In this document: one piece after another, positions 1 to 47,674 of the stretch | Numbering within the stretch: the first letter of the stretch is position 1 | How the letters are laid out: every line of letters starts with the position of its first letter | Source: a virus | Direction: 5' to 3' (one strand) | Length of the DNA: 49,557 nucleotides | IMG/VR virus record: IMGVR_UViG_3300048997_000080 | Span: 1-49,557 of that record | Program-made: the position numbers and the translations under genes | Notes under the pieces: generated by a model | Told to the model about the DNA's origin: nothing | Database searches by the model: none | Seen by the model: the letters and a program-made list of their open reading frames with translations, nothing else

Positions 1-35
1 GGCAGACCCCAGCACCCCCCGCCCTGGGGCCTGCC
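1..35. other. Imperfect hairpin at the window edge
   Basis: GGCAG at 1-5 pairs with CTGCC at 31-35, and CCCCAG at 7-12 pairs with CTGGGG at 24-29. One A/C mismatch and an 11-base C-rich loop complete an 11-bp stem. There is no T run, so it is not a standard terminator. A second short palindrome (CCGCCGAT/ATCGGCGG, 54-70) follows before the lectin ribosome binding site. Role unknown. Confidence 0.4.
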
Positions 36-92
36 GGTGGGCTCGATTCCCCCGCCGCCGATCATCGGCGGACCACTTCACAAGGAGACGAT

Positions 93-1202
93 TTGAACAT
101 CTTTAGCAAGCTCGCCGCGCCCGTCGTGGGTGCCGGGCTCGCGCTGGGTGCCCTGGCTATGGCCGGAGGAGCAGCCTCCGCGGCCACCGTCACCCCGGGC
201 GTGACGACCACGGTCGTGCTGGACAACGGCGGCTACAAGCAGTGCCTGAACGACAAGGGCGGCAGCCACGCCGCCGGAACCCCGGTGGTGCTGTACACGT
301 GCAGCACCGCCGCGAACAACCAGTGGACCGCCTTCCCCGACAACACGCTGCGGCCCGCCGGTGACACCAACGTCGCTCTCGCGGACGTGTCCGGCAAGGC
401 AGTCCTGGAGCCGGTGGGCGGTACCGGCCAGGACTGGTACGTCCGCGCCGACGGGTCGATCATCTCGGGCCTGTCGGTGCCGGGGTCCTCGATCCTGAAG
501 CTCAACGACCCGGGATTCAATGCCGCGAACGGCACGCAGCTGGTCGTGTTCAACGAGACCGCGGCGACCGGGACCAACGAGCACTGGTATCTGCCGAAGG
601 CCCGGTATGCGACGTCGAAGCTGTCGGCGCGGCCGGACTCGGGCAACGGCGGGAACAACTGGGCCAACGATGCGATGACCCGCGGCTCGATGGTCCTGTA
701 CACGGGGGACGCCAGCACCGGCGTGCACTCCTACCAGGGCAGTGTCTACGACAACGGCACGTTCTACGGGGTCGCCGGGACGCTCACCCCGAACCAGGGC
801 GGCGCCTATGCGACCGTGACGCAGGCTGATTCGACCACCGGCCAGATCGCCGGGTTCGCGAACTACCTGTTCACCTCCAGCGCGTTCGTGTCCTCGGCGC
901 CGGGTTCGGCCTACTCCGGCAGCCAGCCGTCCACGGGATCCTGGCCGGCGCTGTTCTTCGCCTCCGGTGCGGTCACCGATGGCGGCCTGCAGAACAGCGG
1001 GCCGGTCGCATGGCACTGGGGCTATGGGCAGACCAGCAACGACAACTGCTCAGTGAAGGAAACGTGGGTCGACGGGGCCGCCAACTCCAGCGGGAATGTG
1101 ACCGGGGCGGGCAACATCTTCGGCGGTTCGGGAACCGGTGGCTCGAATGCTTCCTGCGCCACCATCACGGCCGCTGCGCGGCCCAGCATCTACGGTGACT
1201 GA
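93..1202 (+). CDS. Secreted ricin-type lectin protein
   Basis: The 369-residue product begins with a clear signal peptide: Lys near the start, a hydrophobic Ala/Gly/Leu core, and a likely cut after an ASA motif near residue 31. Residues 40-165 resemble a ricin-B beta-trefoil, with QW- and DW/HW-type repeat ends (NNQW, GQDW, NEHW). The remaining 200 residues are Gly/Ser/Asn-rich with no domain I can name. The start is TTG, chosen because AAGGAG at 82-87 lies 5 nt upstream. It is on the plus strand, opposite the phage structural genes, so it looks like an independently expressed accessory gene. Carbohydrate binding outside the cell is inferred from the fold; the target is unknown. Confidence 0.8.
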   Translation: MNIFSKLAAPVVGAGLALGALAMAGGAASAATVTPGVTTTVVLDNGGYKQCLNDKGGSHAAGTPVVLYTCSTAANNQWTAFPDNTLRPAGDTNVALADVSGKAVLEPVGGTGQDWYVRADGSIISGLSVPGSSILKLNDPGFNAANGTQLVVFNETAATGTNEHWYLPKARYATSKLSARPDSGNGGNNWANDAMTRGSMVLYTGDASTGVHSYQGSVYDNGTFYGVAGTLTPNQGGAYATVTQADSTTGQIAGFANYLFTSSAFVSSAPGSAYSGSQPSTGSWPALFFASGAVTDGGLQNSGPVAWHWGYGQTSNDNCSVKETWVDGAANSSGNVTGAGNIFGGSGTGGSNASCATITAAARPSIYGD

Positions 1203-3893: not shown

Positions 3894-4931
3894 TCAGAGG
3901 GTGTGGTACGACAGCGGTGCCTTGCCGTCCTGGTCGCCGCCGTCGACTCGCCAGATCGAGAAGCCGTTGCAGTCGGCCGGCGCGGCGATCTCGTAGGTCC
4001 AGGTGCCGTTGGCGGGCAGCGCGATCTCGGGGGTCAGGTAGGGCTGGCCACCCTCGTGGTTGATCAGCAGGTGGAACTTCGGCGGGACGGCCTGCATCTC
4101 CTGCCAGCCGCCGCAGACGATGACGATGTTGCTGACCTGGCCGCCGGCCCAGGAGAACGCCTCCCAGGTTCCTTTGGCGGCGCTGACCGGTCCTGCTGGC
4201 ATGTCTTCCTCCATCGGTGGCTGAACGGGCCCGGGCGTGGGCTTGGGTGCGGGCTGCTGGCCGCCGTACGCGAGGGCGGCGAGCTCGTCGATCGAGCCGT
4301 GGTAAAGGCTCGCGTCACAGGTGCCGACACCGGGCACGGCGTAGCTGTCGGTGAACTGCCACAGCGTGTGCGGCGTGGACGGTTCGGCGGACTGATAGGC
4401 GGCGATCCACTGGACGGGCAGCAGCCCGGTCTCCTGGCCGAATGAGAGGCCCGTGTAGGTCCACAGGTACGGCTTGATCCCGTTGCCGTACAGCTTGACC
4501 ATCTCGTTGTACCAGGCGGTGAGCATGGCCTTGGCGCCCTGCTCGCAGTCGGCGATGAACACCTCACCCGGCTGGATGGCACCGACGAGAGTGCGGAACG
4601 CCCGGGCCTGCGCCGCACCGTCCTGGCCCGCGACGAGGAATTGGTAGATCCCGCAGAAGCGGACGCCACCCTGGTGCAGCGCCAGCCGCCGGGCCCCGCT
4701 GTACCAGGCTGTGTCCACGTGGCTGGTGCCGTACAGGCTGCGGATGACGATGGCCTTAGACCAGTTGAGGTAGGCCGCGTCGGTGATGCTGGCCTGGAAT
4801 TCTGAGCAGTCGGCCAGCAGAACCTTGGAGCCGGACGCGACAGCCCCAGCCGCGTGCAGGGGCAGGTAGCCGGGCTGCTCGCCGGGCACATGCCCGGCGC
4901 GGAACGCCTTGAACTCGGGGTTGATGCTCAC
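3894..4931 (-). CDS. GH25 lysozyme (endolysin) with C-terminal binding region
   Basis: The GH25 fold is indicated by LADCSEFQ near the start (family D-x-S-x-x-Q), FIADCEQG (the D-x-E acid pair) and a late LWQFTDS...GVGTCDAS segment. This enzyme class cuts the N-acetylmuramyl-N-acetylglucosamine bond. A Pro-rich linker then leads to about 90 residues likely to bind the wall. I start it at GTG 4931: AGGAAGG lies about 10 nt upstream and the GTG overlaps the stop of the zinc-ribbon mini-gene (GTGA). The reading frame is open up to 5369, so a 491-residue fusion with the upstream membrane gene is also possible on paper. Product from 4931: 345 residues. Confidence 0.8.
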   Translation of the reverse strand: MSINPEFKAFRAGHVPGEQPGYLPLHAAGAVASGSKVLLADCSEFQASITDAAYLNWSKAIVIRSLYGTSHVDTAWYSGARRLALHQGGVRFCGIYQFLVAGQDGAAQARAFRTLVGAIQPGEVFIADCEQGAKAMLTAWYNEMVKLYGNGIKPYLWTYTGLSFGQETGLLPVQWIAAYQSAEPSTPHTLWQFTDSYAVPGVGTCDASLYHGSIDELAALAYGGQQPAPKPTPGPVQPPMEEDMPAGPVSAAKGTWEAFSWAGGQVSNIVIVCGGWQEMQAVPPKFHLLINHEGGQPYLTPEIALPANGTWTYEIAAPADCNGFSIWRVDGGDQDGKAPLSYHTL

Positions 4932-5038
4932 TGCGCGGCTACCTTCCTGACGGGGCGCCATGCCTTCAGGCAGGTCTGGCACCAGCCTTTGACCGTGCTC
5001 GGTGCCGCCCACCGGCCGCATCGCCAGCACCACTTCAT
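4928..5038 (-). CDS. Zinc-ribbon mini-protein (36 aa)
   Basis: This short frame encodes CWRC, a 13-residue spacer, then CQTC: two CxxC pairs fit one zinc site. A GGGGG ribosome binding site lies 5 nt before the ATG, and the stop overlaps the lysozyme GTG. About 86% of its third codon positions are G or C, somewhat higher than the overlapping lysozyme-frame extension, which supports this frame as the coding one. Partner and role unknown. Confidence 0.55.
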   Translation of the reverse strand: MKWCWRCGRWAAPSTVKGWCQTCLKAWRPVRKVAAQ

Positions 5039-5369
5039 GGCTGCCCCCGGCCTGATCCTTGTTGTGCCGGTGAATGTGCGCGATGCGGCGTCTTGTCAGC
5101 CGCTCTCCCGTGTGGGCGGGATGGCAGTGGCGGCAGAGGCGGTATGTGATCCCGGTCGCCTCATCAGTGAAGTCGTACTTGGCGTGCCGCGGGCACCACC
5201 AGGTGTGGCAGGTGTGATGGATGTACCAGCCGAAGAACCAGACGGTCACGCCGACGAGGAACGACCCGGCTATGCCGGACCAGAACGAGTACCAGCCCCA
5301 GTGACCGTAGGGCAGGCCGTAGTCGATACCCCCGGTGTGGACGAGCCATCGCCAGATGACGGCGATCAC
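5035..5369 (-). CDS. Membrane protein with Cys/His cluster, 3' end unclear
   Basis: The GTG at 5369 has AAGGAG 5 nt upstream. The product starts with one hydrophobic helix (SGIAGSFLVGVTVWFFGWYI), then Cys/His pairs (HHTCH, CPRH, CRHCH) and a basic helix. Related actinophage proteins are about 110 residues and end here. In this sequence the frame has no stop and runs into the lysozyme. One extra base in the GGGGG near 5046 would create a TGA overlapping the zinc-ribbon ATG. The given 3' end is that expected stop, so the interval is not a multiple of three. Confidence 0.5.
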
Positions 5370-7196: not shown

Positions 7197-10007
7197 TCAG
7201 TGGGTGTAGGTGATCTTCAGGAACGGGGCGACGCCTGAAGCGGCGTTGTTGCCCGCCCAGTAGCCGTAACCGGTCAGGGCTGTCCCGCCGCTGGGGACTC
7301 GCACGCCGACGTACCGGAGGCTGCCCGCCACCATCGCGGCGACCATCACGGTTACGTCGATGACCAGGCCTTGGCCTTCGCCGAAAGCCACCTGGTTGTA
7401 CTGGCTGGAGAACGTGCCCACCGACGAGCTGGTGGCGGTGTGCGTGTAGAGATAGGCGCCGGTGTCGTACCAGGTGCGCTTGTTCTGCAGCCGCAGCAGC
7501 GCTTGGTTGACGACCGCCCCTGACGGGACCGCGTTGATCACGGAGAAGAAGTCCATGATCGAGTACTGGGAGCCCCAGCCACCCGGGTTGCCCGAGGCCT
7601 GCCCCTGGTACATGTCGCCGTTGTGGTTCCGCTGACCGCCGGCCGAGCTGTACGACCAGGTGTTGTCGGTGAGGCCCTGCGCAACCTGCGTACCGCCCGA
7701 CGTGCCGGAGCCGCCCGCCCGCGGCACCCACGAGTTTGGGACCGTCGGGGCGCCCATGTCGTACACGGTGAGAGCCCCGGTGCCTTGCAGGAAGGTGCTG
7801 GATGACGTGTTGATCACTTGGATCGCCGGGGTGGCGCCGCTGCTGGCCAGCGAGACCACGAGCCGTAGCGTGCACGCCGCAGTCGTCTGGAACACTCGCA
7901 TGGCCGTGGCGGATGCGCCGGTAGTGGACACCGTGGCCACGATCGGGACGGTGAACAAGATATCGCTGCTGGTGGTGGGCTGGCTGCCATCAGTGGTGCC
8001 GTGGACTCGGACGGTCCCGTTCCCGGCGGCGCTCATCGAGAACCGCATCGTTTCCAGGGTGACCAGGTACGAGCGGTTGGCCTGCAGATCAACGTCGATT
8101 TCGTAGAGAGCTACGAGTCCGGTACCGGTGACCGCGGTTGTCGGGTACGGCAGGTTCGCCGATGGAATGTAGCCGCGCTGGATGACACCGGCCGGGTAGG
8201 TCGGCAAGGCGTCGTTGACGATCGACTGCCCGTTGATCAGCATGTCGGAGCCAGAGATGACCTGGCCGTTGATGTTGCCCTGGGAGTCGATCGAGGCCAG
8301 CTGGGTGCCGTACGGGTCCTGCACGCCGAATGTGTTCGTCTGCCCGGGGATGCCGTAGAACTGCTGCCCCTGCTCGTAGACGTTGCCGAACTGGTCGGTG
8401 CCGCCCGTGGGGCTGTTCGAGTAGACCAGGCCGCCGGGGATCGCGATGTTGTCGATCTCGAAGAACTGGCCGGAGGTGGCGTTGGCCGCTTCCAGCACGG
8501 ACAAGGTCGCCGACAAAGCCCCGGCCGGCACCGTGGCCCCGGTGATCGTCAGGGTCGCGATTTCACCGGCGGTGGTCGCGATCGTGCCCAGGTCGCCTGC
8601 TGCCGTGCCCAGGTTCGAGCCGGTGCCGTTCGCCCCGGACCAGAACGTGAGCACGAGCTCCAGCGCCGACAGCGCCGACGGGGTGTAAATGTCCAGCTTC
8701 GCTGAGGCGGTCGCCCCGGCCTGCACCACGAACGCGGGACTCTTCGCGCCCCATGGATTGGTGGTCGTCCCGGACGCGGTTACCTTCAGCGAGTCGTTGC
8801 CGTCGCTGGCCCATGTGGTCGTGTCGACCGACAAGGTGGACGCTGTGGCAACCCACGACATCGTGGTGCCGGTCTCGAAGCTCCAGTTCGTCGGCCCGGT
8901 GAGCGACTGGTAGACGAGCTGGGTGCCGTTCGGCTGGATCTGCTGGAGCAGCTGGCCGCTGGCCTGGTACCAGTTCGTCGTCCCGTCTGGGGCGATCTGG
9001 AACAGCGTCACCCCGGAGCTGTTCGTGATCGTGATCGACCCGTCCGGGTTGATCGACGTCTTCGGGTTGGTGGCGCTGTTCCGGATCGTGGAGCCGGTGA
9101 TGACCTGGCCGTCGACCACTCCGGCCGCCACCTTCGCCGCGGTGATGGCGTTGGCGGCGATCTGCGCAGCGGTGATCGTCCCGGCCGCGATCTGAGAGGC
9201 CGTGATCGTGTTCGCAGCGATGAGAGCCGCGGTGATCGTCCCGGCCGCGATGTTGGCGGCGAGGATCGTGTTCGCCGCTATCTGGGCGGTGGTCACCGCC
9301 CCGTTGGCGATGGCGTTGGTGCCGAACTGGTAGAACGACCAGGTGGTGCCATTCCACTGGTTCATCCGGTAGTTGTTGCTGGTGTCGAACCAGATGTCGT
9401 TCACCAGCGGGCTCGCCGGAGCGGCCGGGCTGATCGTGACCGTGACGCCGTTGGCGTTGAACGTGACGTCGCCGGAGCCGATGAGGGCCGGGGTCGCGCT
9501 CTCCTGGTCGCTGGGTGCCGAGGCCGCTCCGGACCGGTTGATGGCCACCAGGACCACATACTGTGCGACGGTGGCCAGCGGCACCGCCGTGTAGGTGCCG
9601 GCCTTCGGGAGCGTGCTCATCAGCGTCCCCGACGACGGGGTGAACCCGCTGGTGCCGGAGACGTGGACCTCAACGTGGTCGAAGTCGTTCGGCTGGGAGA
9701 CGCCACCAGCGAACGTGCCGTCCCACGTGATGCTGATCCCCAGCGGTGCCGGGGTGACCAGCGGAGCGGACGGGACCGGGCCGGCCGGGCCGTTGATCTC
9801 GGTGAGGGTGACCGTGCCGTCGGACTGGGCGCCGATCACCTGCCGGACGGTGCCGTCGGTGTCTTTCACCAGCAGGGCACTGCCGTCGATGGCCGCGTTG
9901 TTGAGGTTGTTCGTGCGGGTGCCGCGCTCGAGCCGGGCCTGCCGCTCAGCGAGCTTGCCGATTTCGGCCGTCAGCCCCTGCAGCGTCTGGGCGAGCCGGG
10001 CGTCCAT
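7197..10007 (-). CDS. Large tail fibre / minor tail protein with decapeptide repeats
   Basis: The 936-residue product begins with a coiled coil (residues 1-30), then a fibronectin-like region. It continues with six tandem ten-residue repeats of the form TxxxIAAxTI (about residues 245-310), typical of trimeric fibre shafts. Several beta-rich Thr/Gly/Ser domains follow. The ATG at 10007 is 1 base after the hub gene stop, with no strong ribosome binding site, so coupling is likely. As the long protein after the hub it is the best candidate for the receptor-contacting fibre. Confidence 0.75.
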   Translation of the reverse strand: MDARLAQTLQGLTAEIGKLAERQARLERGTRTNNLNNAAIDGSALLVKDTDGTVRQVIGAQSDGTVTLTEINGPAGPVPSAPLVTPAPLGISITWDGTFAGGVSQPNDFDHVEVHVSGTSGFTPSSGTLMSTLPKAGTYTAVPLATVAQYVVLVAINRSGAASAPSDQESATPALIGSGDVTFNANGVTVTISPAAPASPLVNDIWFDTSNNYRMNQWNGTTWSFYQFGTNAIANGAVTTAQIAANTILAANIAAGTITAALIAANTITASQIAAGTITAAQIAANAITAAKVAAGVVDGQVITGSTIRNSATNPKTSINPDGSITITNSSGVTLFQIAPDGTTNWYQASGQLLQQIQPNGTQLVYQSLTGPTNWSFETGTTMSWVATASTLSVDTTTWASDGNDSLKVTASGTTTNPWGAKSPAFVVQAGATASAKLDIYTPSALSALELVLTFWSGANGTGSNLGTAAGDLGTIATTAGEIATLTITGATVPAGALSATLSVLEAANATSGQFFEIDNIAIPGGLVYSNSPTGGTDQFGNVYEQGQQFYGIPGQTNTFGVQDPYGTQLASIDSQGNINGQVISGSDMLINGQSIVNDALPTYPAGVIQRGYIPSANLPYPTTAVTGTGLVALYEIDVDLQANRSYLVTLETMRFSMSAAGNGTVRVHGTTDGSQPTTSSDILFTVPIVATVSTTGASATAMRVFQTTAACTLRLVVSLASSGATPAIQVINTSSSTFLQGTGALTVYDMGAPTVPNSWVPRAGGSGTSGGTQVAQGLTDNTWSYSSAGGQRNHNGDMYQGQASGNPGGWGSQYSIMDFFSVINAVPSGAVVNQALLRLQNKRTWYDTGAYLYTHTATSSSVGTFSSQYNQVAFGEGQGLVIDVTVMVAAMVAGSLRYVGVRVPSGGTALTGYGYWAGNNAASGVAPFLKITYTH
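9115..9305 (-). repeat. 30-bp tandem coding repeats of the fibre shaft
   Basis: Six direct repeats of about 30 bp encode the decapeptides TTAQIAANTI, LAANIAAGTI, TAALIAANTI, TASQIAAGTI, TAAQIAANAI and TAAKVAAGVV. Positions 7-8 alternate between AN and AG. The alternation suggests a structural period of two units (20 residues). Confidence 0.75.
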
Positions 10008-10008
10008 A

Positions 10009-13000
10009 TCAGCTCTGGCCCGGGATGTAACTGCCGGTCCCGCCACCGCCGCTGGTGTCGGCCGGCAGGTAGGTGAACGTGTCGGACCGGGCGGTGGTCA
10101 GGTCCACGGTCGTGCCGGTCAGGTCCAGGGTGTAGCTGGTGATCCGGTGCCAGATGACCCGCTCGCCACCGGGCCCCTTCAGCGTGATGGGGATGTCATC
10201 GCCGTCGGCGTAGGAGCCGATCGGCGCGTTCGGGTGCTGGGCGACGGTCAGCGAAGTCACCTCATCCAGTCCCTGGCTGGCGGCGAGTTCCTTCCGGGCC
10301 GCGGCCGTGACCGCCGAGGCGGAGATCAGCGACTGGTCGGTGTAGGCGAGGCGGCGCAGCAGCCGCCCGTCGCTGACCGCCACCACCGACCGGAGCATCT
10401 CCGACCCTGACCCGGCGCCGAGGCCGACGACCTCGTTCGCGTAGTCGGTGCCGCGATTGGTGACGGTGACGACGGAGGAGATGTTCTCCCCCTCGGCGAA
10501 CCGCAGGTTTGAGCGGCGGGTGCCCAGGCGCGGGGAGCCGATCATCAGCCGCTTGGTGACCGCCTGCTTGCTGTCATCAGCCCACGAGCAGGTGACGGCG
10601 AAGTCGGCGGGGGCCTGCTGGGCGAGGCTGGCGATCTCCTGGCCGAGGTCGGTGGAGTTCCACCAGTCCAGCTCGTACGGGGTTACCGCCCCCGTGTTGA
10701 CGCTGGTGATCGTGCAGTAGCCGCCCGAGTCCGGGGTGGAGATCACCCAGTGCTCGTTGTCGGTCCCGCTGATCGGGTAGATGATGATCGGCGCCCGCTC
10801 AGCCTGCGACTGCTGCTTGACGTTGAGGGCCATCCCGGTGGCCTTGTTGATGATCGTCACGTAGTTGCCGCCGCTGACAACCTGCCACTTCTGGGTGTCG
10901 AGGCCGTCCGCGGGGTACTGGATCGCGGCGGCGCTCTGGGCGGTCGACGCGATGCCGATGTTCATGCCGGAGTGCTTGTTCTTGATCGTCAGGTAGCCCT
11001 GGGCGTCGAGGGCGGAGAACTTCCACAGCTGGTTGTCGCTGCCCAGGTTCGCGAACTGCTCCAGCCACTGCCCGGCCGTGGTGGACAGCTGCGGCACATC
11101 GATGACCATGCCGCTGCTGTCCTTGGTGTTGCCGATCCGGGCCGTGCTGGCGGTGGAGTCCAGGACGAGGCCGAGGTTGGAGGTGACGGCAGTGGGCAGG
11201 CTCGGGTCGTCGTTGCCGCGGGTCTGGATGTAGGTCCACAGGTCGCGGATGACATCCAGCGGGTCCGCGTTGGTGCGCACGTACGGGTCGCCGTTGTAGA
11301 TGAAGCCTTGGCTGTAGTCGGAGAAGCCGATCCCGTTGAGGGTCAGGGTGGGGTCGGTGTATTCGGGGTCGTTGAGGATGCCGCCCCAGATGATCTGGTC
11401 GTCTTCCTCCACATACAGGTAGCAGCCCCAGGCGGGCAGGATCAGGTTGCCGCGGGCGTCGTACAGTTCCGGATCGGCGGGGGCGATGGCTGGCGCGCAG
11501 GCGTCGCCGCCATTCAGCCCCCAGGTGAGGCTGCCTCCCGTGACTTGCAGGTCGCGGTGCAGCCACGTGCCATCGAGGGCCTGGGCGTAGTAGCGGTACC
11601 GGGGCCCGGCAGGCAGGGGCTGCGATCCGCCGGGGAGGGGTGAGGACAGGACCGGCGGGGAGGCTTGGCCGCCGAACATGGCGAGGAACGCCCGGCGGGA
11701 CTGCGGCACGGGCAGCAGGGTGCCGTTCAGCTTCCGGACGGCTGCGGTGTCGGGGTCGAAAACACCGTTGCCCGGATGCTCCCACAGGGCATGCATCCCG
11801 GCGCCGGCGATGTAGCCGGCGGCCATCGCGCTGATGAAGTGGGCGTTGTCACCGCCGCCGGGGTAGCCGTTGCTCCACCACAGTTCCAGGCCCCATTCGG
11901 GGAACGCCAGCGGCACTCCTTGCGCCGCCGCGAACGACACCCACGACGTCAGCCCGGAGCCTTGGCTTTCCTGCGCGGCGAACCGGGTTTCCTGGGTGGC
12001 GATGTCCCGGGTGTACGGCGGCTTGGAGAGGTTCGCGTACCCGCCGTCGTAGACGTCCAGCCCGATGAAATCGGTGTAGTCGGCACCGGGGAAGGCTGAG
12101 GAGACGGTGCTGATCCCGGACCCGCCGCCACCGAGGAACGGGTTCCACATGAAGGTAAACTCCGCGCCGGGCAGGTTCCGCAGCAGGGTGACGATATGCT
12201 GCCAGCCGGCGATGAAGTTCGCGACCCCGCTGGTCCCGGTGGCCTTCACTTCCCACGGGTACCAGGTGCCGTTGAACTCCCGCGCGATTCGCAGGCAGGC
12301 GTCCCCGTAGCCGTTGGCGATCAGGTAGTTGCCGAGCGCCGTCCAGTGCGCGTCGTTCTTGCCCGCCGCCTCATCGGCCCACGTGGCGCCGCCGGTGCCG
12401 ATGGTGGAACCGCAGCAGGCAGGCACGCCCAGCATGATCCGCCGCGACCCGATGTCCCCCCAGGCGGACAGCGGGCTCGCCGGGGTGGTGAAGCACTGCT
12501 CAAACTGCGTCCACGACGTGGGGCCCTCGATCATGAAGTCGAGGACGTAGTCGACCTGCCGGCCCAGCCACGCCTCGTACGCCTGGATGGACGACAGCGG
12601 CTCCCCGGCGACTGGGGGCATCCCCGCGTACTTGCTGTAGGAGATGCCGAGGCCGCTGGTCGCGTACTGCCCGCACCGGCCCCGGAACACGCCGGCGGGA
12701 ACAGCAGACAATGTCCCAGCGATGCCGAATGTGACCGCGCACCCGTCCCAGTCGTGCACGGATCCCTGTGTCGCCGAGAAGGACCCGCTTCCGCTGGTCC
12801 AGGCGAACTGGCCGAAATCCGACAGCAGGTGATCGGACAGGCCGGACGGCCAGGGCGTGCCGCTGTTGTTGCCCGGGTAGCCCGCGCAGAACACGCTGAA
12901 CGTCCCGGCCGCCTGCCCGGCCGGGCTGGCGAGGGTGATGGGCCGCACGGCCGTGTTCGAGCCACCGGTGACGACGCCGAGGTTCGCGAACGCGCCGGCT

Positions 13001-13302
13001 GGCCCGGACGCCTCCACGTAGCCGATGGCATAGCAGCCATCGCAGGAAAGGCCGGTGACCCCGGCCGGCACGTCCGGGTAGAGGAAGATGCCGGTGAAGT
13101 CGCCGCCGTGCCCGGCCGTCCAGACCAGCGGGGTGAGGACGGTCCCGTCGGAGGCGGTGACCACGTCCGAGGTGGCCGAGTTCGACAGCACGACAGCGAT
13201 CAGCGCGTGCCCGGCCGCTCCGCTGGTCGGGGTGCCCAGGGTGACGCTGCTGGCACCGCCGCCTGATGCGCCTTCCTGAACGGGCGTGAAGGTTGCGGTC
13301 AC
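10009..13302 (-). CDS. Tail hub protein carrying GH26-like and ricin lectin domains
   Basis: The start is GTG 13302, overlapping the upstream TGA (GTGA); product 1097 residues. Residues 1-200 are a beta-rich head. Residues 205-545 match a GH26-type glycosidase: LRIAREFNG (acid E342), FMWNP, IGLDVYD and FPEWGL (nucleophile E469). Residues 560-1097 resemble a siphovirus hub/minor tail protein (YVEEDDQIIWGG near the start, FAEGENI and DDIPITLKG near the end). Inside the hub, residues about 715-875 form a ricin-B lectin with NQLWKF, TQKWQV and NEHWVI motifs. The protein should bind and cut a host surface polysaccharide during adsorption; that role is inferred. Confidence 0.8.
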   Translation of the reverse strand: MTATFTPVQEGASGGGASSVTLGTPTSGAAGHALIAVVLSNSATSDVVTASDGTVLTPLVWTAGHGGDFTGIFLYPDVPAGVTGLSCDGCYAIGYVEASGPAGAFANLGVVTGGSNTAVRPITLASPAGQAAGTFSVFCAGYPGNNSGTPWPSGLSDHLLSDFGQFAWTSGSGSFSATQGSVHDWDGCAVTFGIAGTLSAVPAGVFRGRCGQYATSGLGISYSKYAGMPPVAGEPLSSIQAYEAWLGRQVDYVLDFMIEGPTSWTQFEQCFTTPASPLSAWGDIGSRRIMLGVPACCGSTIGTGGATWADEAAGKNDAHWTALGNYLIANGYGDACLRIAREFNGTWYPWEVKATGTSGVANFIAGWQHIVTLLRNLPGAEFTFMWNPFLGGGGSGISTVSSAFPGADYTDFIGLDVYDGGYANLSKPPYTRDIATQETRFAAQESQGSGLTSWVSFAAAQGVPLAFPEWGLELWWSNGYPGGGDNAHFISAMAAGYIAGAGMHALWEHPGNGVFDPDTAAVRKLNGTLLPVPQSRRAFLAMFGGQASPPVLSSPLPGGSQPLPAGPRYRYYAQALDGTWLHRDLQVTGGSLTWGLNGGDACAPAIAPADPELYDARGNLILPAWGCYLYVEEDDQIIWGGILNDPEYTDPTLTLNGIGFSDYSQGFIYNGDPYVRTNADPLDVIRDLWTYIQTRGNDDPSLPTAVTSNLGLVLDSTASTARIGNTKDSSGMVIDVPQLSTTAGQWLEQFANLGSDNQLWKFSALDAQGYLTIKNKHSGMNIGIASTAQSAAAIQYPADGLDTQKWQVVSGGNYVTIINKATGMALNVKQQSQAERAPIIIYPISGTDNEHWVISTPDSGGYCTITSVNTGAVTPYELDWWNSTDLGQEIASLAQQAPADFAVTCSWADDSKQAVTKRLMIGSPRLGTRRSNLRFAEGENISSVVTVTNRGTDYANEVVGLGAGSGSEMLRSVVAVSDGRLLRRLAYTDQSLISASAVTAAARKELAASQGLDEVTSLTVAQHPNAPIGSYADGDDIPITLKGPGGERVIWHRITSYTLDLTGTTVDLTTARSDTFTYLPADTSGGGGTGSYIPGQS

Positions 13303-14234
13303 GGCGCTTCGACGAACTCGATGTCCAGCGACATGGACGTGTTCGCGTCCGCGGTCAGGCTCTGGTCGGTGCCGGACTTGATGCCCTCGATCGCCGCGGT
13401 GATGGTGGTGCCGCGGATCGCCGAGGGGATCGCGCCCTGGTCGGCGTTGATGACGGTGAACCGGTCGTAGTTCGCGCCGGACGGGACCGAGAGGTCGTAG
13501 CCGGCACCCGCTGAGACGATCCCGCCGATGTTCCACCGGATCCGCCCGAACGTCGAGCCGACGGCGCATTTGGCACCGCTGACCGTGGCGACGGCGATGA
13601 CCCGCCCGGCCCACGGCGGCACATAGACCGACCAGCTCGCCGGGGTGGGCCAGGTCGCGTACGACGCCGAGCTGAGCGCGTAGGTGGTGGCGCCGGTAAT
13701 CGTGCCGGTGAAGATGCTCCGCTGCTGGCGGGGCGACAGCATCTGCCGCAGGTCGGTGATCATCGCCTGCGTGATCGCCGAGGTGGACACCGGGATGTCG
13801 ATGCGGGCCAGCGCCACCCCGGTGATACCGGACGGGACATCGGTGGTGCCCGAGGTCACTCCGCTGACCACCTGGGGCGACCAGGGCGGGTCGGTGTCCT
13901 GCCACGGCGAGCCGGGGAACGTGGGGTCCTTCACCTGCGCGATGATCAGGTCCGACCGGCCGCCGCCGGAACCGGTCGCCGTGATCGGCACGGACACTGA
14001 GCCGACGTTGTAGCCGAAGTAGGAGCCCTGGAACGTGGATTCGGCACCGAGCGCCACGGCTGCTCCGGACGCCACGTCAACGGCCGCCCCGGGCGTGCCC
14101 AGGGCGGTGACGGCCAGGTCGGTGGCATCAACGACGCCGTTGCCGGAACGGGACGCCGACTGAAGCTGCAACCGCCAGATCTGGGCGGGCATCGCCACGT
14201 CATCGATGGCCCAGGCCGTATCCGCGAAACTCAA
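13299..14234 (-). CDS. Minor tail / baseplate protein (311 aa)
   Basis: The start is taken as TTG 14234, 13 nt after the previous stop, with GAGGGGG about 10 nt upstream; a GTG and an ATG follow in frame at codons 11 and 13. The product has two beta-rich parts: residues 1-160, with a GSYFGYNVGSVSVPI strand region, and residues 185-311. Position between the distal tail protein and the hub is that of a tail-tip component. No catalytic motif seen. Confidence 0.6.
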   Translation of the reverse strand: MSFADTAWAIDDVAMPAQIWRLQLQSASRSGNGVVDATDLAVTALGTPGAAVDVASGAAVALGAESTFQGSYFGYNVGSVSVPITATGSGGGRSDLIIAQVKDPTFPGSPWQDTDPPWSPQVVSGVTSGTTDVPSGITGVALARIDIPVSTSAITQAMITDLRQMLSPRQQRSIFTGTITGATTYALSSASYATWPTPASWSVYVPPWAGRVIAVATVSGAKCAVGSTFGRIRWNIGGIVSAGAGYDLSVPSGANYDRFTVINADQGAIPSAIRGTTITAAIEGIKSGTDQSLTADANTSMSLDIEFVEAP

Positions 14235-14247
14235 GCTGGCCGCCCCC

Positions 14248-15150
14248 TCATACCTGTGCGCCGAAGATCTGGGATGCATTCCGCCATGCGACGGTGCACG
14301 AGGAGCGGCCGGTGGAGTCCTGGCCGCTGTAGGACATGGCCGTCGCACCGGGCGGCAGGGCCAGGTCGGCCGGCCGGTTCCCCGTGAGCCGGCCGGCGAA
14401 CGACCCGCCGGACGGACTGGTCACCGACCGGGCCCACGGCCGGGTGTCGATGATCGCCTGCTGCCCGCTGACCAGCGTCCCGGTCAGGCCCACCGACAGG
14501 GCCAGGTCGGTGAAGGTGAGCAGCGGGGTGGTGACCGGCCCGGTGAACGTGATCACCGGCCACGTGGATTCCGTGCCAGCGTTGACGGCCACACCCGGTC
14601 GCGGGCCGCCCGGGGCTGCGAGAAGCACTGGGGGCGTGACCGGGGGTGCCACTCCCCCGCCCGGGTCAGCCCAGGCCAGCGACATGGCGACCTGCTGCTC
14701 GGTGTCGTCGTAGAACAGCGGGTCGGCGGTCGCGAACGCCGCCGTGAACCCGATCAGGTCGATGCCCTTGCTGTAGAGCGCCGGGGCGATCGACCGGCCG
14801 CGCCCGTACATCCGCCACGTCCCCGGCAAGCCCGGGAACCGGTACCGCAGCACCGACACCGCGCGGGGAGACAAGCGGACCGCCGGGTTGTTCCACGCGG
14901 CCACCAGCGCCGCGTAGTCGCCGAACACGCCCTGCGGGTCGCCGCCATCGGCGACGTGCCCGGTGAACGTGACCGTGCGGGAGCCCATCGCGTCGATGCC
15001 GAACGCCTGCCCGTCGGCAAGGATCATCGGGGTGTCCTGTGTCACCGCCGCCGGGGCGTCCACCTCGACCTGCTCGATCGTGATCCGGCCCGTGCCGCCA
15101 CCGAACAGGTACCCGTCAAGGTCACCCTGGTTCTCGGCAAGCCCTGCCAC
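14248..15150 (-). CDS. Distal tail (Dit-like) protein
   Basis: The 300-residue product follows the tape measure directly, the usual Dit position. Features fit siphovirus Dit proteins: an N-terminal beta domain (GYLFGGGTGRITIEQVEV), a LYSKGIDLIGFTAAFATADPL strand region, and a C-terminal galectin-like beta region from about residue 175. GGAGGTGA upstream supports the GTG start, and that site overlaps the tape-measure stop. Confidence 0.7.
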   Translation of the reverse strand: MAGLAENQGDLDGYLFGGGTGRITIEQVEVDAPAAVTQDTPMILADGQAFGIDAMGSRTVTFTGHVADGGDPQGVFGDYAALVAAWNNPAVRLSPRAVSVLRYRFPGLPGTWRMYGRGRSIAPALYSKGIDLIGFTAAFATADPLFYDDTEQQVAMSLAWADPGGGVAPPVTPPVLLAAPGGPRPGVAVNAGTESTWPVITFTGPVTTPLLTFTDLALSVGLTGTLVSGQQAIIDTRPWARSVTSPSGGSFAGRLTGNRPADLALPPGATAMSYSGQDSTGRSSCTVAWRNASQIFGAQV

Positions 15151-15153
15151 CGC

Positions 15154-18100
15154 TCACCTCCGGGGGAATCCGGCTTGCCGGGCGCGTCGCATCGTGAACA
15201 GCAGCTGCCCCATGGCCTCATCCACGGTCGGGCCTTGCTGCGGGGTGATAGTCACGCTGCCGATCAACGGTGCCGCGGCCCCGTCGCTGCCGCCGTAATT
15301 GGCGCCGAGCGGGGTGACGGTCACCTTTTCCGGCCGTGTGCCCTCGCCGACGCCGATCAGGGTGGGGGTGCTGAAGATCTGGCCAGGGAGGCCCTTGGCG
15401 TACCAGTTGAACGCCCGCTCGTGTGCCGCCGCCGCTATCGGGTTCCCGTAGCGCTGAGCGATGTAGTTGACCATTCCGACGGCCTGGCCGGCGGCCGTCG
15501 TCGAGTTGCCGCCGTACTGGGCGTATTCGGACGGCCCGTTGATGAACTGCGCCATCCCGTACGCCCCCGATGACGGGTTGGTGGCGGTCAGGCTGTATCC
15601 GGCTTCCCGCATCTCCACGTAGTTCAGCGCGTTCCACTGGGCCCCGGTCCAGCCCTTCTTGGCCGCCGCCGACTTCAGCGCCGCATAGGCCGAGGAGTTC
15701 GCCACTCCCGACGTGCTGATCCCGCCGCCACCGCCGCCGAAGCCGAGCAGGCCCAGCAGGTCCGAGCCGAGGCCTTTGGCCCCGGACAGGGCCGACCCGA
15801 GCCCGGCCAGCACCGACGAGCCGAGACCCTTCAGCGCGGAGATCGCCTTGCCGGGCAGCTTCGCGGCTGAGATGATGCCGTGCTCCAGCAGCCCGGCCAG
15901 CGCCCTCGGGGCCGACCCGAAGATCTTCTTGATCGCGCCGAGCGGGTCACCGGCGATGATGCCGCGCAGCAGCCCGGCGATCATGTTGAAGCCGATCCCA
16001 TGGAACACCGTCGACGGCGACTTGATGCCGAAGTGGTGCTTCACCCAGGTGATGATCGGGTTGACGATGTTGTTCTTGACCCAGGAGCTGATGCCCTTCA
16101 GCCGGCCGGTGATGCCGTTGAACAGGCCCTGGATCAGATCCCAGCCGTGATTCCACAGCCACGAGCCGCCCTTGGCGAAGTAGCCGGTCAGGGGCTTGTA
16201 GATGTAGCGGTACAGCCACGTGCCGACCGACCGGGCCCGGTTCCAGATGCCTGTTCCGAGCCCCTGGATGATGTCGGATCCGCGCTGGTACAGCCAGGTC
16301 GCGCCCTTCACGAAATAGTCAGTGAGCGGCTTCCACACGTACTTGTAGAGCCACGTCCCGATGGACCGGGCCCGGTCCCAGATCCCGGACCCGAGCCCCT
16401 GGATGATGTCCCGGCCCTTACCCAGCAGCCACGAGCCGCCCTTGACGAAATAGCCGGTGACCGGCTTCCAGATGTACTTGTACAGCCAGCCTCCGATGGC
16501 CTTGGCCCCGGTCCAGATCCCGTCGCCGAGCCCGGAAAGGATGTCCTTGCCCTTGCCGAGCAGCCAGGATCCGGCCTTGGCGAACGGCTTGAGGATCTTG
16601 CCGCCGATCTTGCCGAGGAACCCGGACACGGCACGCCAGCCGTCCTCGGCCCCGTACCACAGCCCGAGCAGCGCCGACTCGCCCTTGCCGAGCAGCCAGG
16701 ACTTCGCGTCGCCGACCGCCGCGCCGATCTTGTCGCCGACCGGGCCGAAGACCTTCTTCAGCACCTTTCCGAGGCCCTTTTCGACTAGGCCGCCGGCCTT
16801 CTCGACCGGGCCCAGGAAGACCCGCACCAGCGGCCCCAGGAGCGGGATCTTGTCGAAGATGTCGATCAGGATGCCCGCGGCCCGCCCGATGGGGATCAGT
16901 GACGCCAGGAACATCAGCATGTCGAGCGGGTGGTGGATGGCCTCATTGATCAGTGCTGGGACCAGGCCGTTGACCAAGCCCACGGCCAGGCCGACCATGA
17001 CGGTCGCGAGACTCCCGCCGAGCGAGGTCCAGTTGATCTTGCCGAGCAGCTTGACGAACTCCGCGCCGATCACCTGCGCGTCACTGATCGCGCTGTCGAT
17101 GATGCTGGTGAAGACCTTCCCCCAGTTGACCTTCTTGATCATCGACGTGATGGAGTCGCTGGCCTTCTTGCTCGCGGCCGGGGCCGTCTTGGTGAAGATT
17201 CCCTCGTTCTGCAGGTCGATCTGCGGTGTGGTCTTCAGGACCGGCGTGTGGGTGAACAGGCCCTCGTTCTGGATGTCGACCTGCGGCTTGACCTTCAGCG
17301 TCGCCGTCTTCGTGAACAGGCCCTCGTTGCTCAGGTCGATCCGGGGCGTGATCTTCGGGGCCTTCTCCCCGCCCATGCCGAACAGGTTCTTGACCCACTG
17401 CTCGGCCTTCTTGACGTCCTGCTCGATCGCGGAGACCGGGATGATCCCGGCGACCTTCTTCGTGAATGCGGCCACGCCGGGCACACCGGTCTTGTTCAGC
17501 CAGCCGACGAACTTCGTGACGGGGGGCAGCAGATCGAGCCCGAGCCGGATGCCGAGAGCGTCGACGGTGCCCTTCAGCATGTCGAACTGCTGCGCGGCCG
17601 TCTTGTTGTTGGCGGCGACCGCGCTGCCGAAGTTACTCGCGCCCTTGGTTATCTCTGGGTACTTGGACTTCACCCGGTTGAGCTGGTCCATGAGGACGTT
17701 GATGCCGGTGCCGGCCTTCTTGCCGAAGATGTCGGTGATCTCCTGGCCCTGCTCCTTCGCGGTGACGCCATTAGCCTTGAACAGCCTCTGCAGGTGTTCC
17801 AGGGCCGGCAGCAGGCCGCCGTTCTGCATGTCCTTCGCCAGGGAGTCGGCGGAGACACCCCAGCCGTCCAGGATCTTCTTCCCGGCGGCTGACGGGACGG
17901 CCAGAGCCATCACCGACATCCGCAGGTCGGTCGCGGCGTCGGCGCCGCGGATGTTGTTGTCACCGAACGTGGCTAGTGCGGCGCCGACGTCGGTCAAGGA
18001 CAGACCGAAGCCCTTGACAACGGCGACCATGCCGGTGCCGAACGCCTCGGCGAGGTCTTGCATGTGCATGTCACCGGAGCCGACGATGGCATTGAGGGCA

Positions 18101-18609
18101 CCCATCGCCTGGCTGTAGTTCTGCACCCCGGGGATGTTGGAGGCCACAGCCGCGCCGAGGGCGTTGGTCACGTCGACGATGTCAGCGCCGCCGACCTTGG
18201 CTCCTTCGGCGGCGATCTTGACGAGGTTCAGCGCCTTCGGCCCCGTGATACCCAGGGAACTGAACGCGGACTCGACGTGGTACAGGGACTCGGCCAGCGA
18301 GTCCGGGTCAACACCGACCTGCCCGGCGAGCTGGAGGACACCCTTGGACAGGCCGGCGATCTGGGACTGAGCCACCCCGGCCTGCGTGTGGATCTTCTCC
18401 ATCGACGACTGGAACTTCGCCGCGGCCTTGACCGACTCCACGCCGACCGCGACCGCCCCGCCAGCGATCACGGCCCCGGCCAGCGCGATCGTCTTGGAGA
18501 CCCGCGAAACGGTCTTCTCCAGGCGGCCAGCGGACGCCCCGGCCTTGTCGAACGCGGGAGAAGCCCGGTCCCGCCCGATTAGGTCGTATATGACCGCAGT
18601 TGTCCCGAT
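15154..18609 (-). CDS. Tape measure protein with C-terminal transglycosylase domain
   Basis: About 1151 residues. The N-terminus is helical; residues about 385-445 hold three 20-residue repeats around NEGLFTKT. A hydrophobic block near 500-570 follows, then four 45-residue repeats around WLYKYIWKPVTGYF. The C-terminal 190 residues resemble a lytic transglycosylase (VEMREAGY with the likely catalytic Glu, then GAYGMAQF). It sets tail length and probably opens the wall during DNA entry. The start is odd: the frame opens at a TGA, and GGGGGTGA lies 6 nt before an ATC codon at 18609, with no ATG, GTG or TTG until 18471. The 46 residues between (AVIYDLIGRDRASPAFDKAG and on) look like a real N-terminus. 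Confidence 0.85.
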   Translation of the reverse strand: MGTTAVIYDLIGRDRASPAFDKAGASAGRLEKTVSRVSKTIALAGAVIAGGAVAVGVESVKAAAKFQSSMEKIHTQAGVAQSQIAGLSKGVLQLAGQVGVDPDSLAESLYHVESAFSSLGITGPKALNLVKIAAEGAKVGGADIVDVTNALGAAVASNIPGVQNYSQAMGALNAIVGSGDMHMQDLAEAFGTGMVAVVKGFGLSLTDVGAALATFGDNNIRGADAATDLRMSVMALAVPSAAGKKILDGWGVSADSLAKDMQNGGLLPALEHLQRLFKANGVTAKEQGQEITDIFGKKAGTGINVLMDQLNRVKSKYPEITKGASNFGSAVAANNKTAAQQFDMLKGTVDALGIRLGLDLLPPVTKFVGWLNKTGVPGVAAFTKKVAGIIPVSAIEQDVKKAEQWVKNLFGMGGEKAPKITPRIDLSNEGLFTKTATLKVKPQVDIQNEGLFTHTPVLKTTPQIDLQNEGIFTKTAPAASKKASDSITSMIKKVNWGKVFTSIIDSAISDAQVIGAEFVKLLGKINWTSLGGSLATVMVGLAVGLVNGLVPALINEAIHHPLDMLMFLASLIPIGRAAGILIDIFDKIPLLGPLVRVFLGPVEKAGGLVEKGLGKVLKKVFGPVGDKIGAAVGDAKSWLLGKGESALLGLWYGAEDGWRAVSGFLGKIGGKILKPFAKAGSWLLGKGKDILSGLGDGIWTGAKAIGGWLYKYIWKPVTGYFVKGGSWLLGKGRDIIQGLGSGIWDRARSIGTWLYKYVWKPLTDYFVKGATWLYQRGSDIIQGLGTGIWNRARSVGTWLYRYIYKPLTGYFAKGGSWLWNHGWDLIQGLFNGITGRLKGISSWVKNNIVNPIITWVKHHFGIKSPSTVFHGIGFNMIAGLLRGIIAGDPLGAIKKIFGSAPRALAGLLEHGIISAAKLPGKAISALKGLGSSVLAGLGSALSGAKGLGSDLLGLLGFGGGGGGISTSGVANSSAYAALKSAAAKKGWTGAQWNALNYVEMREAGYSLTATNPSSGAYGMAQFINGPSEYAQYGGNSTTAAGQAVGMVNYIAQRYGNPIAAAAHERAFNWYAKGLPGQIFSTPTLIGVGEGTRPEKVTVTPLGANYGGSDGAAAPLIGSVTITPQQGPTVDEAMGQLLFTMRRARQAGFPRR
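16075..16600 (-). repeat. Four 135-bp coding repeats in the tape measure
   Basis: Four imperfect direct repeats encode about 45 residues each, centred on GSWLLGKGxDIIQGLG and WLYKYxWKPxTxYFxKG. They read as an amphipathic, Trp/Tyr-rich unit. Unit gain or loss would change tail length. Confidence 0.7.
17185..17365 (-). repeat. Three 60-bp coding repeats in the tape measure
   Basis: Three direct repeats of about 20 codons encode variants of PxIDLxNEGLFTKT: RIDLSNEGLFTKT, QVDIQNEGLFTHT and QIDLQNEGIFTKT. Function unknown; regular spacing suggests binding sites for a repeating partner. Confidence 0.65.
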
Positions 18610-22973: not shown

Positions 22974-25900
22974 TCAGTTCCACTGGCCCGCCACGGCGCG
23001 GGGTACGGTCATCTGCCCGGCACGTGCGGTGCCGTATGCGGTACCGGTAGTGGCATCGGTGGTCGCTACGGCAGTGATGGCCAGGGAAAGGATGGCGCCC
23101 GACGACGTTGCCACGTTCCCGGCCGCGGCGAGCGTGACAGCGGCAGCGAGCGTGGCGCCGCCGGACGCCCCGGCGGTGACCGACCCGGCCGCCGCGAGAG
23201 TGACCGTGACCGGCAGGCCCGCGGTGCCAGAGTCGGTTCCCGCCGACGCTGCGGTCATCGATACGGCGAGTGCGGCGCCGGAAGCGATGCTCCCGGCCGG
23301 GGTTGCTGTGAGGCTGACGGCGACCGCCAGCGGGGCGCCGCTCGCCGTAGCCACGGTCCCGGACGCAGCCAGGGCCACGGCGACAGCGAGGGACGTGGTG
23401 TCGTCTGCTGTCCCGGCCGCTGCGGTCGTGACCGCTATGGCCAGGGCAGCGCCAGAAGACAGTGTGCCGCTGCCCGCGGCCGTGAGCGCGGCCGCCACGG
23501 CGAGGGATGCACTGCCGGTGGCGCCGCCGCTGGCGCTGAGCGCAGCTGTGATGGTCAGGGGCGCGCCGCTTGCCTCAGCGACGCTCCCCGTAGCGGCCAG
23601 GGCGGCCGTGACGACCAGGGCCGCGCCGGAGGACAGGGTGCTGCTGCCCGCGGCCGCCAGCGCGGCCGCCACGGCGAGCGGGGCGGTGCCGGTGGCGGTG
23701 CCGGTCGCGCTGAGCGCGGCTGTTACGGCCAGGGCGGCGGCGCTGGCGGCGCCACCAGCCGGAGTTGCCGTCAGGCTGACGGTGGCCGCCAGGGACGCCC
23801 CGGAGGCCGTGGCCACGTTCCCCGCCGCAGCGGGGGTGACCGTGACCGGCAGGCCTGCGGCACCGGCGGTGCCCCCGGCCGCCGCCAGGGTGGCCGTGAC
23901 AGCGAAGCTGGCCGCACTGACGGTGGCGACGTTCCCGGTCGCCGTCAGGGTCACGGTGGCGGTGAGGCTGGCACCACTCGCCGCCGCGACGGTCCCGGCC
24001 GCGGTCAAGCTGGCCGTGACGGCGAGTGAGGCGGTGCCGGTGAAGGCACTGACCGGGGGCGCCTGCAAGACCAGCAGCCAGTCAGGGTCGGCCGCGCTGT
24101 TGCTGCCCTGCGCCGTGCTGTTGTACGTGCTGCCCACCGTGGCGGACGAGGTGGCGCCGCTCGCCGGGTCCACCCACGTCGCGGTGTACCCGGCGGCCAT
24201 CTTGGTCTGGTCGATCGTGATGGTCGCGTGCGCCGGGATGTAGATGACCGCCAGCGCCGACCCGGACCCGCCATCCGGGGTGCGGCTGGCGGTCACATAG
24301 GTGTCGCCGCCCTCATACTGGGCGCCGCTAGTCGGGGCGCCCACGCCAGCGAACAGATCAGCGGAACGGGTCCCGCGGCCGGCCGTCACCAGCGCGCTCG
24401 AGGTGTCCGGGACCAGCAGGTGCCAGCCGGGGATACCGGCGAACGTGTCCAGGATCGTCTTGATCGCCGACGGCTGCATGTACCCGGCACCGGGGCTGGA
24501 CGCCCGGGTCAGCGCGTTAGCGGCGAAATTCCACACGTCCTGCGCGCCGTACATGTAGCCGCGCGACCCCGACGACAGAGCCCACCAGTAGCTCTTGCGG
24601 CCGAACAGCTCCTCGCTCTCGGTCAGCGCCGTGGCCTCGTTGTCATACCAGCCGTCCATGCGGACGTTGACCAGCGAGGGAACCGAGTTGGCGGCGGCCT
24701 CGGTGTAGGCGTCCTCGACCGCGTTGTACGTGGTGCTGTAGTCGTAGATCCAGTTGAACTGGGCGTGGGCGATGCCCCAGGCGTAGGAGGCGTCGCTGGG
24801 CCCCCGGCAGGCGTACCGGGAAGCGCCGCCGGACATGTTCTCCACGGAGATCAGCTGGTTCGCGCTGGCCCCGCGCAAGCCGGTCAGGAACCCGCTGAAC
24901 TGCGCGTCGAACGCGCCCGCGCCGCCGACCCAGCTGCCGTTGTAGTCGTCGCCAACCTCCCAGATGAGGTTGGGTGTGCTGGCGTACCGGGCGCCCGCCG
25001 CCGCGCCGTAGCTCTGGCACTGGGTGGCCGTCCACCCGTGCAGCGAACCGCCCGTGTTGAACAGGGCGTAGGTGTACATGGCGTTCAGCACCACGGTCAG
25101 GCCGTTAGCCGCCGCCGAGCTGATCAGGTAGTCCACCCGGGCCCAGAAAGTGCTGTTCAGCACCCCCGGGGAGCTGAACGGGAACACACCGTCCCAGGTT
25201 TCCCCGCTGTCATTGGGGGATCCGCTGCCAGCCGTCCCGACCGGGGTCGCCAGGAAGCCGTTGAAGCCCTGCGCCGCGCGGGTCGCGGTGTAGGCGTCCA
25301 TGTCGGACTGGAAGGTGGTCGCGCCGCCGTTCTGCCCCGCGTTGGTGATGACCGCCCACGCCGTGTCCCAGCGCAGCAGGTACGGGGCACCGGACTGGTC
25401 CGCGAAATACAGCGCCTGCCCGGACCCGGCGGTGGACGTGAGGAACTGCGGGGTCGCGGTGGCCCGGGCGCTCGCCGTGACAGCGAGGGAAGCGCCGGAG
25501 GACGGCTGCGCAGGCGGGGGCGCCCCCGCGATCTGCTGAAGGCGGCGGTGCCGGTGCCGCCAGTTCCTGCTGAACACCTGCCGGGGGGCGGTCGCGCCCG
25601 GTGAGGCGCCCCCGCCGCCGGTGGCGAGCTGGAACGCGACCACGATCTGGCCCCAGCCCTGGCCGCTGCTGGTGATCCCGTAGGAGCTGGCCTCAGATCC
25701 GCCCGTGGAATTCTTCGAGGCGATCTGCAGGTCGTCGATGGTGCTGGCGTTGACGCCGTTCGCGTCGCCGGTGTACCCGGCGGGGACCGTCCAGGTGGCG
25801 CCCGAGCCGTCGTCGCCGTAGATGCTGACCAGGTACTCGTTCGCGGCCGCCGTGCTGTAAGCCGGGCTGCCCGTCGAGGTGCCGCCGGTGCCGGAAGCCG

Positions 25901-47667: not shown

Positions 47668-47674
47668 GGCGAAC

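What the first reader, a model, noticed from the sequence alone, without database searches (positions are those of the whole stretch)
10009..13302. Tail hub with a GH26-like enzyme in front and a ricin lectin inserted inside
The hub fold is interrupted by a beta-trefoil lectin (about 715-875) and preceded by a complete GH26-like catalytic domain with both acidic residues. Binding and cutting functions are built into a core baseplate part and not a detachable fibre.
Basis: partly seen in the sequence, partly recalled or inferred. Interest (0 to 1): 0.8.

Follow-up and report, generated by a model that had tools for sequence, protein, structure and literature searches.

The report
Phage tail hub with built-in lectin, glycosidase
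A virus of (most likely) soil actinobacteria has built both a sugar-binding lectin and a polysaccharide-cutting enzyme into the hub at the tip of its tail, using a loop of the hub where related phages plug in a variety of other domains.

Summary
Window 10009-13302 (minus strand, 1097 aa) encodes a tail hub. Its two halves (566-725 and 875-1078) match the hub gene of Arthrobacter and other actinophages, in the same gene order. They fold with high confidence into the gp44/gp27/Tal hub fold on both sides of a ricin-type beta-trefoil (about 727-872). In front lies a full GH26 barrel domain (about 200-548). Its E342 and E469 align with two glutamates of GH26 lichenase and are invariant in nine sequences. 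The same catalytic module (62% identical) sits on a different tail-region protein in one other virus; secreted relatives occur in soil Acidimicrobiales.

Of 91 related hubs, 37 carry 40-160 aa inserts there (coiled coils, LysM-like, beta domains), but none found carries a ricin lectin or a GH26. Limits: one of three lectin repeats keeps the usual sugar-binding residues; the subsite His next to the acid/base is Arg, so mannan is not a safe guess; activity, trimer geometry and host are untested. Domains inserted in hubs are already known (lambda gpJ, T5 pb3), so this is a new variant of a known kind.

The parts
10009..13302 (-). Tail hub protein, 1097 aa, GTG start overlapping the stop of the upstream gene
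12718..13302 (-). N-terminal segment, residues 1-195, probably beta-rich; no family found
   Evidence: no Pfam match; AF2 model below 50 pLDDT; no BLAST similarity to L033 or to the apiosidase-like protein N-terminus
11659..12705 (-). GH26 catalytic domain, residues about 200-548; E342 codon 12277-12279, E469 codon 11896-11898
11128..11607 (-). First half of hub fold, residues 566-725
   Evidence: PHROG 1885, alignment to actinophage hubs, AF2 and Foldseek
10687..11124 (-). Inserted ricin-type beta-trefoil lectin, residues about 727-872, three QxW-type repeats
   Evidence: Pfam and PDB sequence matches; absent from all relatives examined; not resolved in the AF2 model
10069..10680 (-). Second half of hub fold, residues 875-1078
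13299..14225 (-). Upstream minor tail protein (PHROG 25212); a homologue ends directly before the hub in 76 of the 85 related loci where one was found; start not fixed
14248..15150 (-). Distal tail protein (Dit-like)
   Evidence: PHROG 5577 and PHROG 33
15154..18471 (-). Tape measure protein
   Evidence: Pfam PF10145, PHROG 28
7197..10046 (-). Downstream large tail protein, probable distal or central fibre
   Evidence: tail-fibre PHROGs; same position as the tail protein after the hub in Arthrobacter phages

Best explanation
The gene encodes the baseplate hub of a siphovirus of actinobacteria. Each subunit carries a GH26 endo-glycosidase at its N-terminus and a ricin-type lectin inserted in a surface loop of the hub, which in a trimer would place three enzymes and three lectins around the tail tip. 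Most likely mechanism: during adsorption GH26 cuts a beta-linked polysaccharide of the host envelope, capsule or surrounding matrix, while the lectin holds the tip on a host surface sugar, so that the hub is brought to the cell wall before opening. Shown here: gene, domain architecture, hub fold, GH26 fold and catalytic pair, lectin identity, and use of the same loop by relatives for other domains. Inferred: assembly as a trimer (from homologous hubs), surface exposure, enzymatic activity, sugar binding, their order of action, and the host.
For: Hub: PHROG 1885 E=1e-50 across the insert; alignment with actinophage hubs; conserved order tape measure - Dit - minor tail - hub - tail protein; Foldseek hits to MuSo2 43 kDa tail protein (E=3e-11, TM 0.68 by target), Mu gp44, T5 pb3, 80alpha and Bxb1. 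GH26: profile E=1.6e-40 to lichenase 2bv9 over the whole domain with E342 and E469 on chain positions 109 and 222; GH26 best fold hits; R338, E342, N344, G345, W347, Y348, W350, Y418 and E469 invariant in nine sequences; GH26 two-Glu retaining mechanism and conserved R197/E201/Y263/E291 in BoMan26B (PMC6556568). Mobile module: 62% identical GH26 at the front of an unrelated protein in the tail region of L094. Lectin. Tolerant loop: 37 of 91 related hubs with inserts of at least 40 aa at the same place; all 14 other members of the window's 15-member clade carry an insert. Precedent: an Ig-like FNIII-A domain inserted in lambda gpJ and a plug in T5 pb3 (PMC10721106); glycan-binding baseplate domains in a mycobacteriophage (PMC13033339).
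Against: No biochemical data. GH26 model confidence is moderate (barrel core 60-97 pLDDT, parts lower) and rests on nine sequences. The canonical subsite His is R341. The lectin did not fold in the model (no homologues in the alignment), and repeats beta and gamma lack the usual Asp (G783, N827), so it may bind weakly or at one site. No trimer was modelled. Host unknown.
Confidence: 0.72

Rival explanations
1. The inserts, lectin included, are mainly structural: they brace the baseplate or dock partner proteins (as coiled-coil inserts could), and the lectin fold is used as a scaffold, not for host sugar binding.
For: Several relatives carry Ala-rich coiled-coil hairpins or Pro-rich segments at the same loop, which are not obvious sugar binders. 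Two of three lectin repeats lack the usual sugar-binding Asp.
Against: Relatives with short loops exist, so an insert is not needed for assembly in the family. Repeat alpha keeps D735 and Q758-L-W760; a LysM-like domain (weak, E=0.03) at the same loop in sister phages points to glycan binding.
Confidence: 0.2
2. The GH26 domain is a retired enzyme used only as a carbohydrate-binding module.
For: Substitution of the canonical His next to the acid/base (R341); position at the free N-terminus of an adsorption protein.
Against: Both catalytic Glu, R338, W347, Y348 and Y418 are kept in all viral and cellular relatives aligned. Four soil actinobacterial relatives with signal-peptide-like N-termini carry Trp at the same His position, so that position varies in the whole subgroup.
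Confidence: 0.13
3. The GH26 acts on environmental polysaccharide, that is, it is an auxiliary metabolic gene of the kind reported for soil viruses, and its fusion to the hub is incidental.
For: GH26 genes are reported as auxiliary carbon genes in soil viromes (PMC6460857, PMC10127799); a viral GH5 endomannanase was shown active (PMC6786970).
Against: In-frame fusion to a hub makes it a virion part; the second viral copy (L094) is also in the tail cluster.
Confidence: 0.08
4. The fusion is an assembly or gene-calling artefact.
For: Metagenomic record; no second copy of the same architecture found.
Against: One uninterrupted frame; third-position G+C 0.90-0.97 in every domain; fusion boundaries match domain boundaries; an independent GH26-tail protein fusion in L094.
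Confidence: 0.03

Closest known systems
PHROG 1885 baseplate hub ('minor tail protein') of Arthrobacter phages such as SWEP2, Yang, Phives
   Same: Same hub core on both sides, 37-38% identity over aligned parts, same gene order; Phives and Janeemi have an insert at the same place
   Different: No N-terminal enzyme; the insert is an Ala-rich coiled coil of about 110-130 aa or a short loop, not a lectin
[quoted passage not shown]
   Same: Extra domain inserted into the hub protein; adhesion role suggested for Ig-like domains (PMC10721106)
   Different: Ig-like or plug domains, no beta-trefoil lectin, no enzyme in the hub; not shown here that the insertion point is topologically identical
Evolved Dit proteins with inserted carbohydrate-binding modules in lactic acid bacteria phages
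   Same: Glycan-binding module inserted in a core baseplate protein (PMC10688798 and related)
   Different: The host protein is Dit, a hexamer, not the trimeric hub; no hydrolase
RcGTA hub and megatron
   Same: Oligosaccharide-binding domains built into hub-level proteins (PMC7296036)
   Different: No GH26 and no ricin lectin reported there; different host phylum
GH26 enzymes, nearest solved relative lichenase CtLic26 (2bv9, endoglucanase H)
   Same: Barrel fold and both catalytic glutamates
   Different: His before the acid/base is Arg; embedded in a virion protein

Membership tests
Tailed-phage baseplate hub (gp27/gp44/Tal family, PHROG 1885) | Sequence match to the hub family on both sides of the insert | tested here: met
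   PHROG 1885 E=1e-50; two-piece tblastn matches in phage records
Tailed-phage baseplate hub (gp27/gp44/Tal family, PHROG 1885) | Hub fold | tested here: met
   AF2 model, flanks mostly above 85 pLDDT; solved hubs are the top Foldseek hits
Tailed-phage baseplate hub (gp27/gp44/Tal family, PHROG 1885) | Position after tape measure and Dit | tested here: met
   Gene order
Tailed-phage baseplate hub (gp27/gp44/Tal family, PHROG 1885) | Homotrimer at the tail tip | not testable with these tools
   No multimer prediction; known for homologues (PMC13252515, PMC13033339)
Glycoside hydrolase family 26 | (beta/alpha)8 barrel of GH26 type | tested here: met
   Foldseek top hits GH26, with moderate model confidence
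Glycoside hydrolase family 26 | Acid/base and nucleophile glutamates | tested here: met
   E342 and E469 align with 2bv9 positions 109 and 222 and are invariant in nine sequences
Glycoside hydrolase family 26 | Pfam PF02156 gathering score | tested here: inconclusive
   18.6 bits against 20.2 for the window protein; 29.2 bits for the 62% identical L094 relative
GH26 beta-mannanase (subgroup of GH26) | Conserved minus-one subsite His before the acid/base | tested here: not met
   R341 in the window, Arg in L094, Trp in four soil actinobacterial relatives, His in three more distant ones; lowers the claim of beta-mannanase, not of the GH26 fold
Glycoside hydrolase family 26 | Catalytic activity | not testable with these tools
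   No assay
Ricin-type beta-trefoil lectin | Three repeats with QxW-type ends | tested here: met
   QLW 758-760, QKW 804-806, EHW 850-852; Pfam above cut-off
Ricin-type beta-trefoil lectin | Sugar-contacting Asp in functional repeats | tested here: inconclusive
   D735 in repeat alpha; G783 and N827 in beta and gamma; the role of this position rests on general knowledge of the fold

The most novel reading that the evidence does not exclude
One loop of the actinophage hub is a general exchange site for adsorption modules (coiled coils, LysM-like, beta domains, ricin lectin), so that host-surface recognition evolves by domain swapping inside the essential core of the baseplate; in this phage it is combined with a tail-borne GH26, making the hub itself a bind-and-cut device and showing that some viral GH26 genes counted as carbon-cycling auxiliary genes can be entry enzymes.
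Probability: 0.5. Interest if true: 0.7.

Novelty: new variant of a known kind. Interest (0 to 1): 0.55.

Why it matters
It points to one precise, recurrent site in an essential tail protein where phages of actinobacteria carry different extra domains, which gives a testable model of how adsorption specificity changes without touching the fibre. It is also a clear case in which a viral GH26, a family counted as auxiliary carbon-degradation genes in soil viromes (PMC6460857, PMC10127799), is welded to the tail hub and is therefore more likely an entry enzyme.

Tried and rejected
Full-length protein and lectin as single queries in IMG/VR: no relatives. Lectin in 50,697 phage records: none at E<=0.01. 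GH26 in phage records: only weak hits (best E 0.2 with the domain alone; with the whole protein E=2e-4 to an endoglucanase of GX15bay). A 40-row full-length alignment (A3) misaligned the cellular GH26 rows to the hub, so the protein was folded as two parts. Idea that L094's tail protein is the same hub family: hhalign gave no support, so it is called only a tail-region protein. Idea that the N-terminal segment 1-195 is shared with L033 and with the apiosidase-like protein of the window: BLAST gave nothing. LysM identity of the L019-group insert is weak (E=0.03, below cut-off). Artefact rejected on codon-position composition. A paper naming the Lic26A catalytic residues was not found in the library.

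Full report
Observation. The window is an IMG/VR virus record of 49,557 bases, 69% G+C, with its virion genes on the minus strand. The ORF at 10009-13302 (minus, GTG start overlapping the upstream TGA) encodes 1097 aa. Third-position G+C is 0.90-0.97 in each of its domains and the frame is uninterrupted, so this is one gene and not an assembly join.

Hub. PHROG 1885 (minor tail protein) matches residues 566-1082 at E=1e-50 while using only positions 12-387 of its profile; the excess is the lectin. tblastn finds matches to the flanking pieces, without the insert, in 141 phage records of Arthrobacter, Gordonia, Mycobacterium, Curtobacterium, Streptomyces and others. Gene order is the same as in Arthrobacter phages: tape measure, Dit, minor tail, hub, tail protein. 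The AF2 model of 546-1097, built on 27 viral relatives, is mostly above 85 pLDDT on both flanks, and its PDB neighbours are hubs: MuSo2 43 kDa tail protein (E=3e-11), Mu gp44, contractile-system hubs and VgrG, T5 pb3, 80alpha, Bxb1.

Insertion site. The lectin interrupts the hub between the conserved RIGNT (to about 725) and YELDWW (from about 877). Locating hubs in 91 other loci with two profile models shows the same boundary: 37 carry at least 40 extra residues there, 24 at least 80 (some loci are near-duplicates). The inserts are of unrelated kinds by inspection: Ala-rich coiled-coil hairpins (Phives, Janeemi, Mysterium), coiled coils with a folded tip (L027, L075), LysM-like domains (L019 group; Pfam E=0.03, below cut-off), tandem beta domains (L014, L033, L092), Pro- or charge-rich segments (L062, L076). 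In a tree of the hub core, the window falls in a supported 15-member clade whose other 14 members all carry an insert of LysM-like or beta type. A Pfam scan of 41 insert-bearing or N-terminally long relatives found ricin and GH26 in the window protein only, and a direct search of all ORFs of these loci with the window's lectin found none.

Lectin. Pfam E=2e-22 and 7e-9; ThreeFoil E=6e-17. Repeat alpha has D735 and Q758-L-W760; repeat beta has G783 and QKW; repeat gamma has N827 and EHW. By general knowledge of the fold, only alpha has the usual sugar-pocket pattern, so one site per subunit is the conservative expectation. The AF2 model did not resolve this domain, no lectin homologues being in the alignment.

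GH26. The window protein is just below Pfam's cut-off (18.6 against 20.2 bits), but a 62% identical domain in another virus (L094) passes it. A profile of nine sequences matches CtLic26 (2bv9) over the whole domain at E=1.6e-40, with E342 on chain position 109 and E469 on 222. The AF2 model's top PDB hits are GH26 lichenase and mannanases, at moderate model confidence. R338, E342, N344, G345, W347, Y348, W350, Y418 and E469 are invariant in the nine sequences. BoMan26B uses R197, H200, E201, Y263 and E291 (PMC6556568): the window keeps R338, E342 and E469 but has R341 in place of the His, as L094 has Arg, while four soil actinobacterial relatives have Trp. The domain is therefore an atypical GH26, and its substrate cannot be read off.

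Where the module comes from. The nearest non-viral relatives found are proteins with signal-peptide-like N-termini in Acidimicrobiales and Solirubrobacterales draft genomes (31-38% identity), with up to eight matches per Acidimicrobiales genome; 10 of 100 genomes drawn from the phylum of the Solirubrobacterales draft (itself among them) had a match. In L094 the GH26 heads a 1371 aa protein a few genes after the tape measure; its C-terminal part is not shown to be a hub (hhalign). So this GH26 appears on two unrelated tail-region proteins.

Mechanism. Homologous hubs are trimers, and in mycobacteriophage Douge the hub's peripheral domains contact glycan-binding baseplate partners (PMC13033339, PMC13252515). 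Three GH26 and three lectin domains around the tip would cut and hold surface polysaccharide during approach to the cell wall. Trimer, exposure, activity and order of action are inferred. The phage retains a separate large tail protein downstream (7197-10046), so the hub adds to a fibre and does not replace it.

Comparison and novelty. Domains inserted in hubs (lambda FNIII-A, T5 plug; PMC10721106), glycan-binding modules inserted in Dit (PMC10688798 and related) and oligosaccharide-binding domains in the RcGTA hub (PMC7296036) are known. A GH26 on a hub with a beta-trefoil lectin in the same chain was not found in the literature searched nor in 50,697 phage records. I file it as a new variant of a known kind; the hotspot is the part with the most general interest.

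Noticed in passing
window 22974-26282 (-): 1102 aa protein with an apiosidase (PF13204, E=2e-25) and cellulase-like domain at 292-590 followed by long Ala/Thr-rich repeats, lying between head and tail genes; no match in 50,697 phage records. A second carbohydrate-active enzyme that may be on the virion.
   Followed up: partly
window 31005-34286 (-): 1093 aa fusion of prohead protease (S78), double zinc ribbons (about 233-306) and HK97-type major capsid protein in one chain; the zinc ribbons between protease and capsid look unusual.
   Followed up: no
window 34373-36382 (-): Portal protein whose C-terminal part (505-655) weakly resembles RNA-ligase PHROGs.
   Followed up: no
window 3-1202 (+): Another ricin-type lectin (Pfam E=4e-8) on a protein with a signal-peptide-like N-terminus at the left edge, opposite strand to the virion genes; may be host flank, which would show that the host uses such lectins. 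Not closely related to the hub lectin.
   Followed up: partly
window 28629-29687 (-): GT4-type glycosyltransferase inside the head-tail gene cluster.
   Followed up: no
window 48830-49555 (-) and 49048-49123 (+): FtsK/SpoIIIE with gamma domain at the right edge, overlapped on the other strand by a tRNA-Glu (CTC) call.
   Followed up: no
window 47173-47754 (-): NlpC/P60 peptidase domain (Pfam E=3e-20), far from the GH25 lysin-like gene at 3894-5369.
   Followed up: no
L094 5830-9945: GH26 (62% identical) at the front of a 1371 aa protein in the tail region; the C-terminal part matches only PHROG 5313 of unknown function and has no relatives in phage records.
   Followed up: partly
L007 8131-9465 (Streptomyces phage Gilgamesh): GH6 with a CBM4_9 domain two genes downstream of a hub of the same family: another hydrolase in the tail cluster of an actinophage.
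   Followed up: no
L014, L022, L033, L092: In the sister clade several genes, including Ala-rich repeat proteins of 749-1093 aa ending just before the hub, lie between the minor tail gene and the hub.
   Followed up: partly
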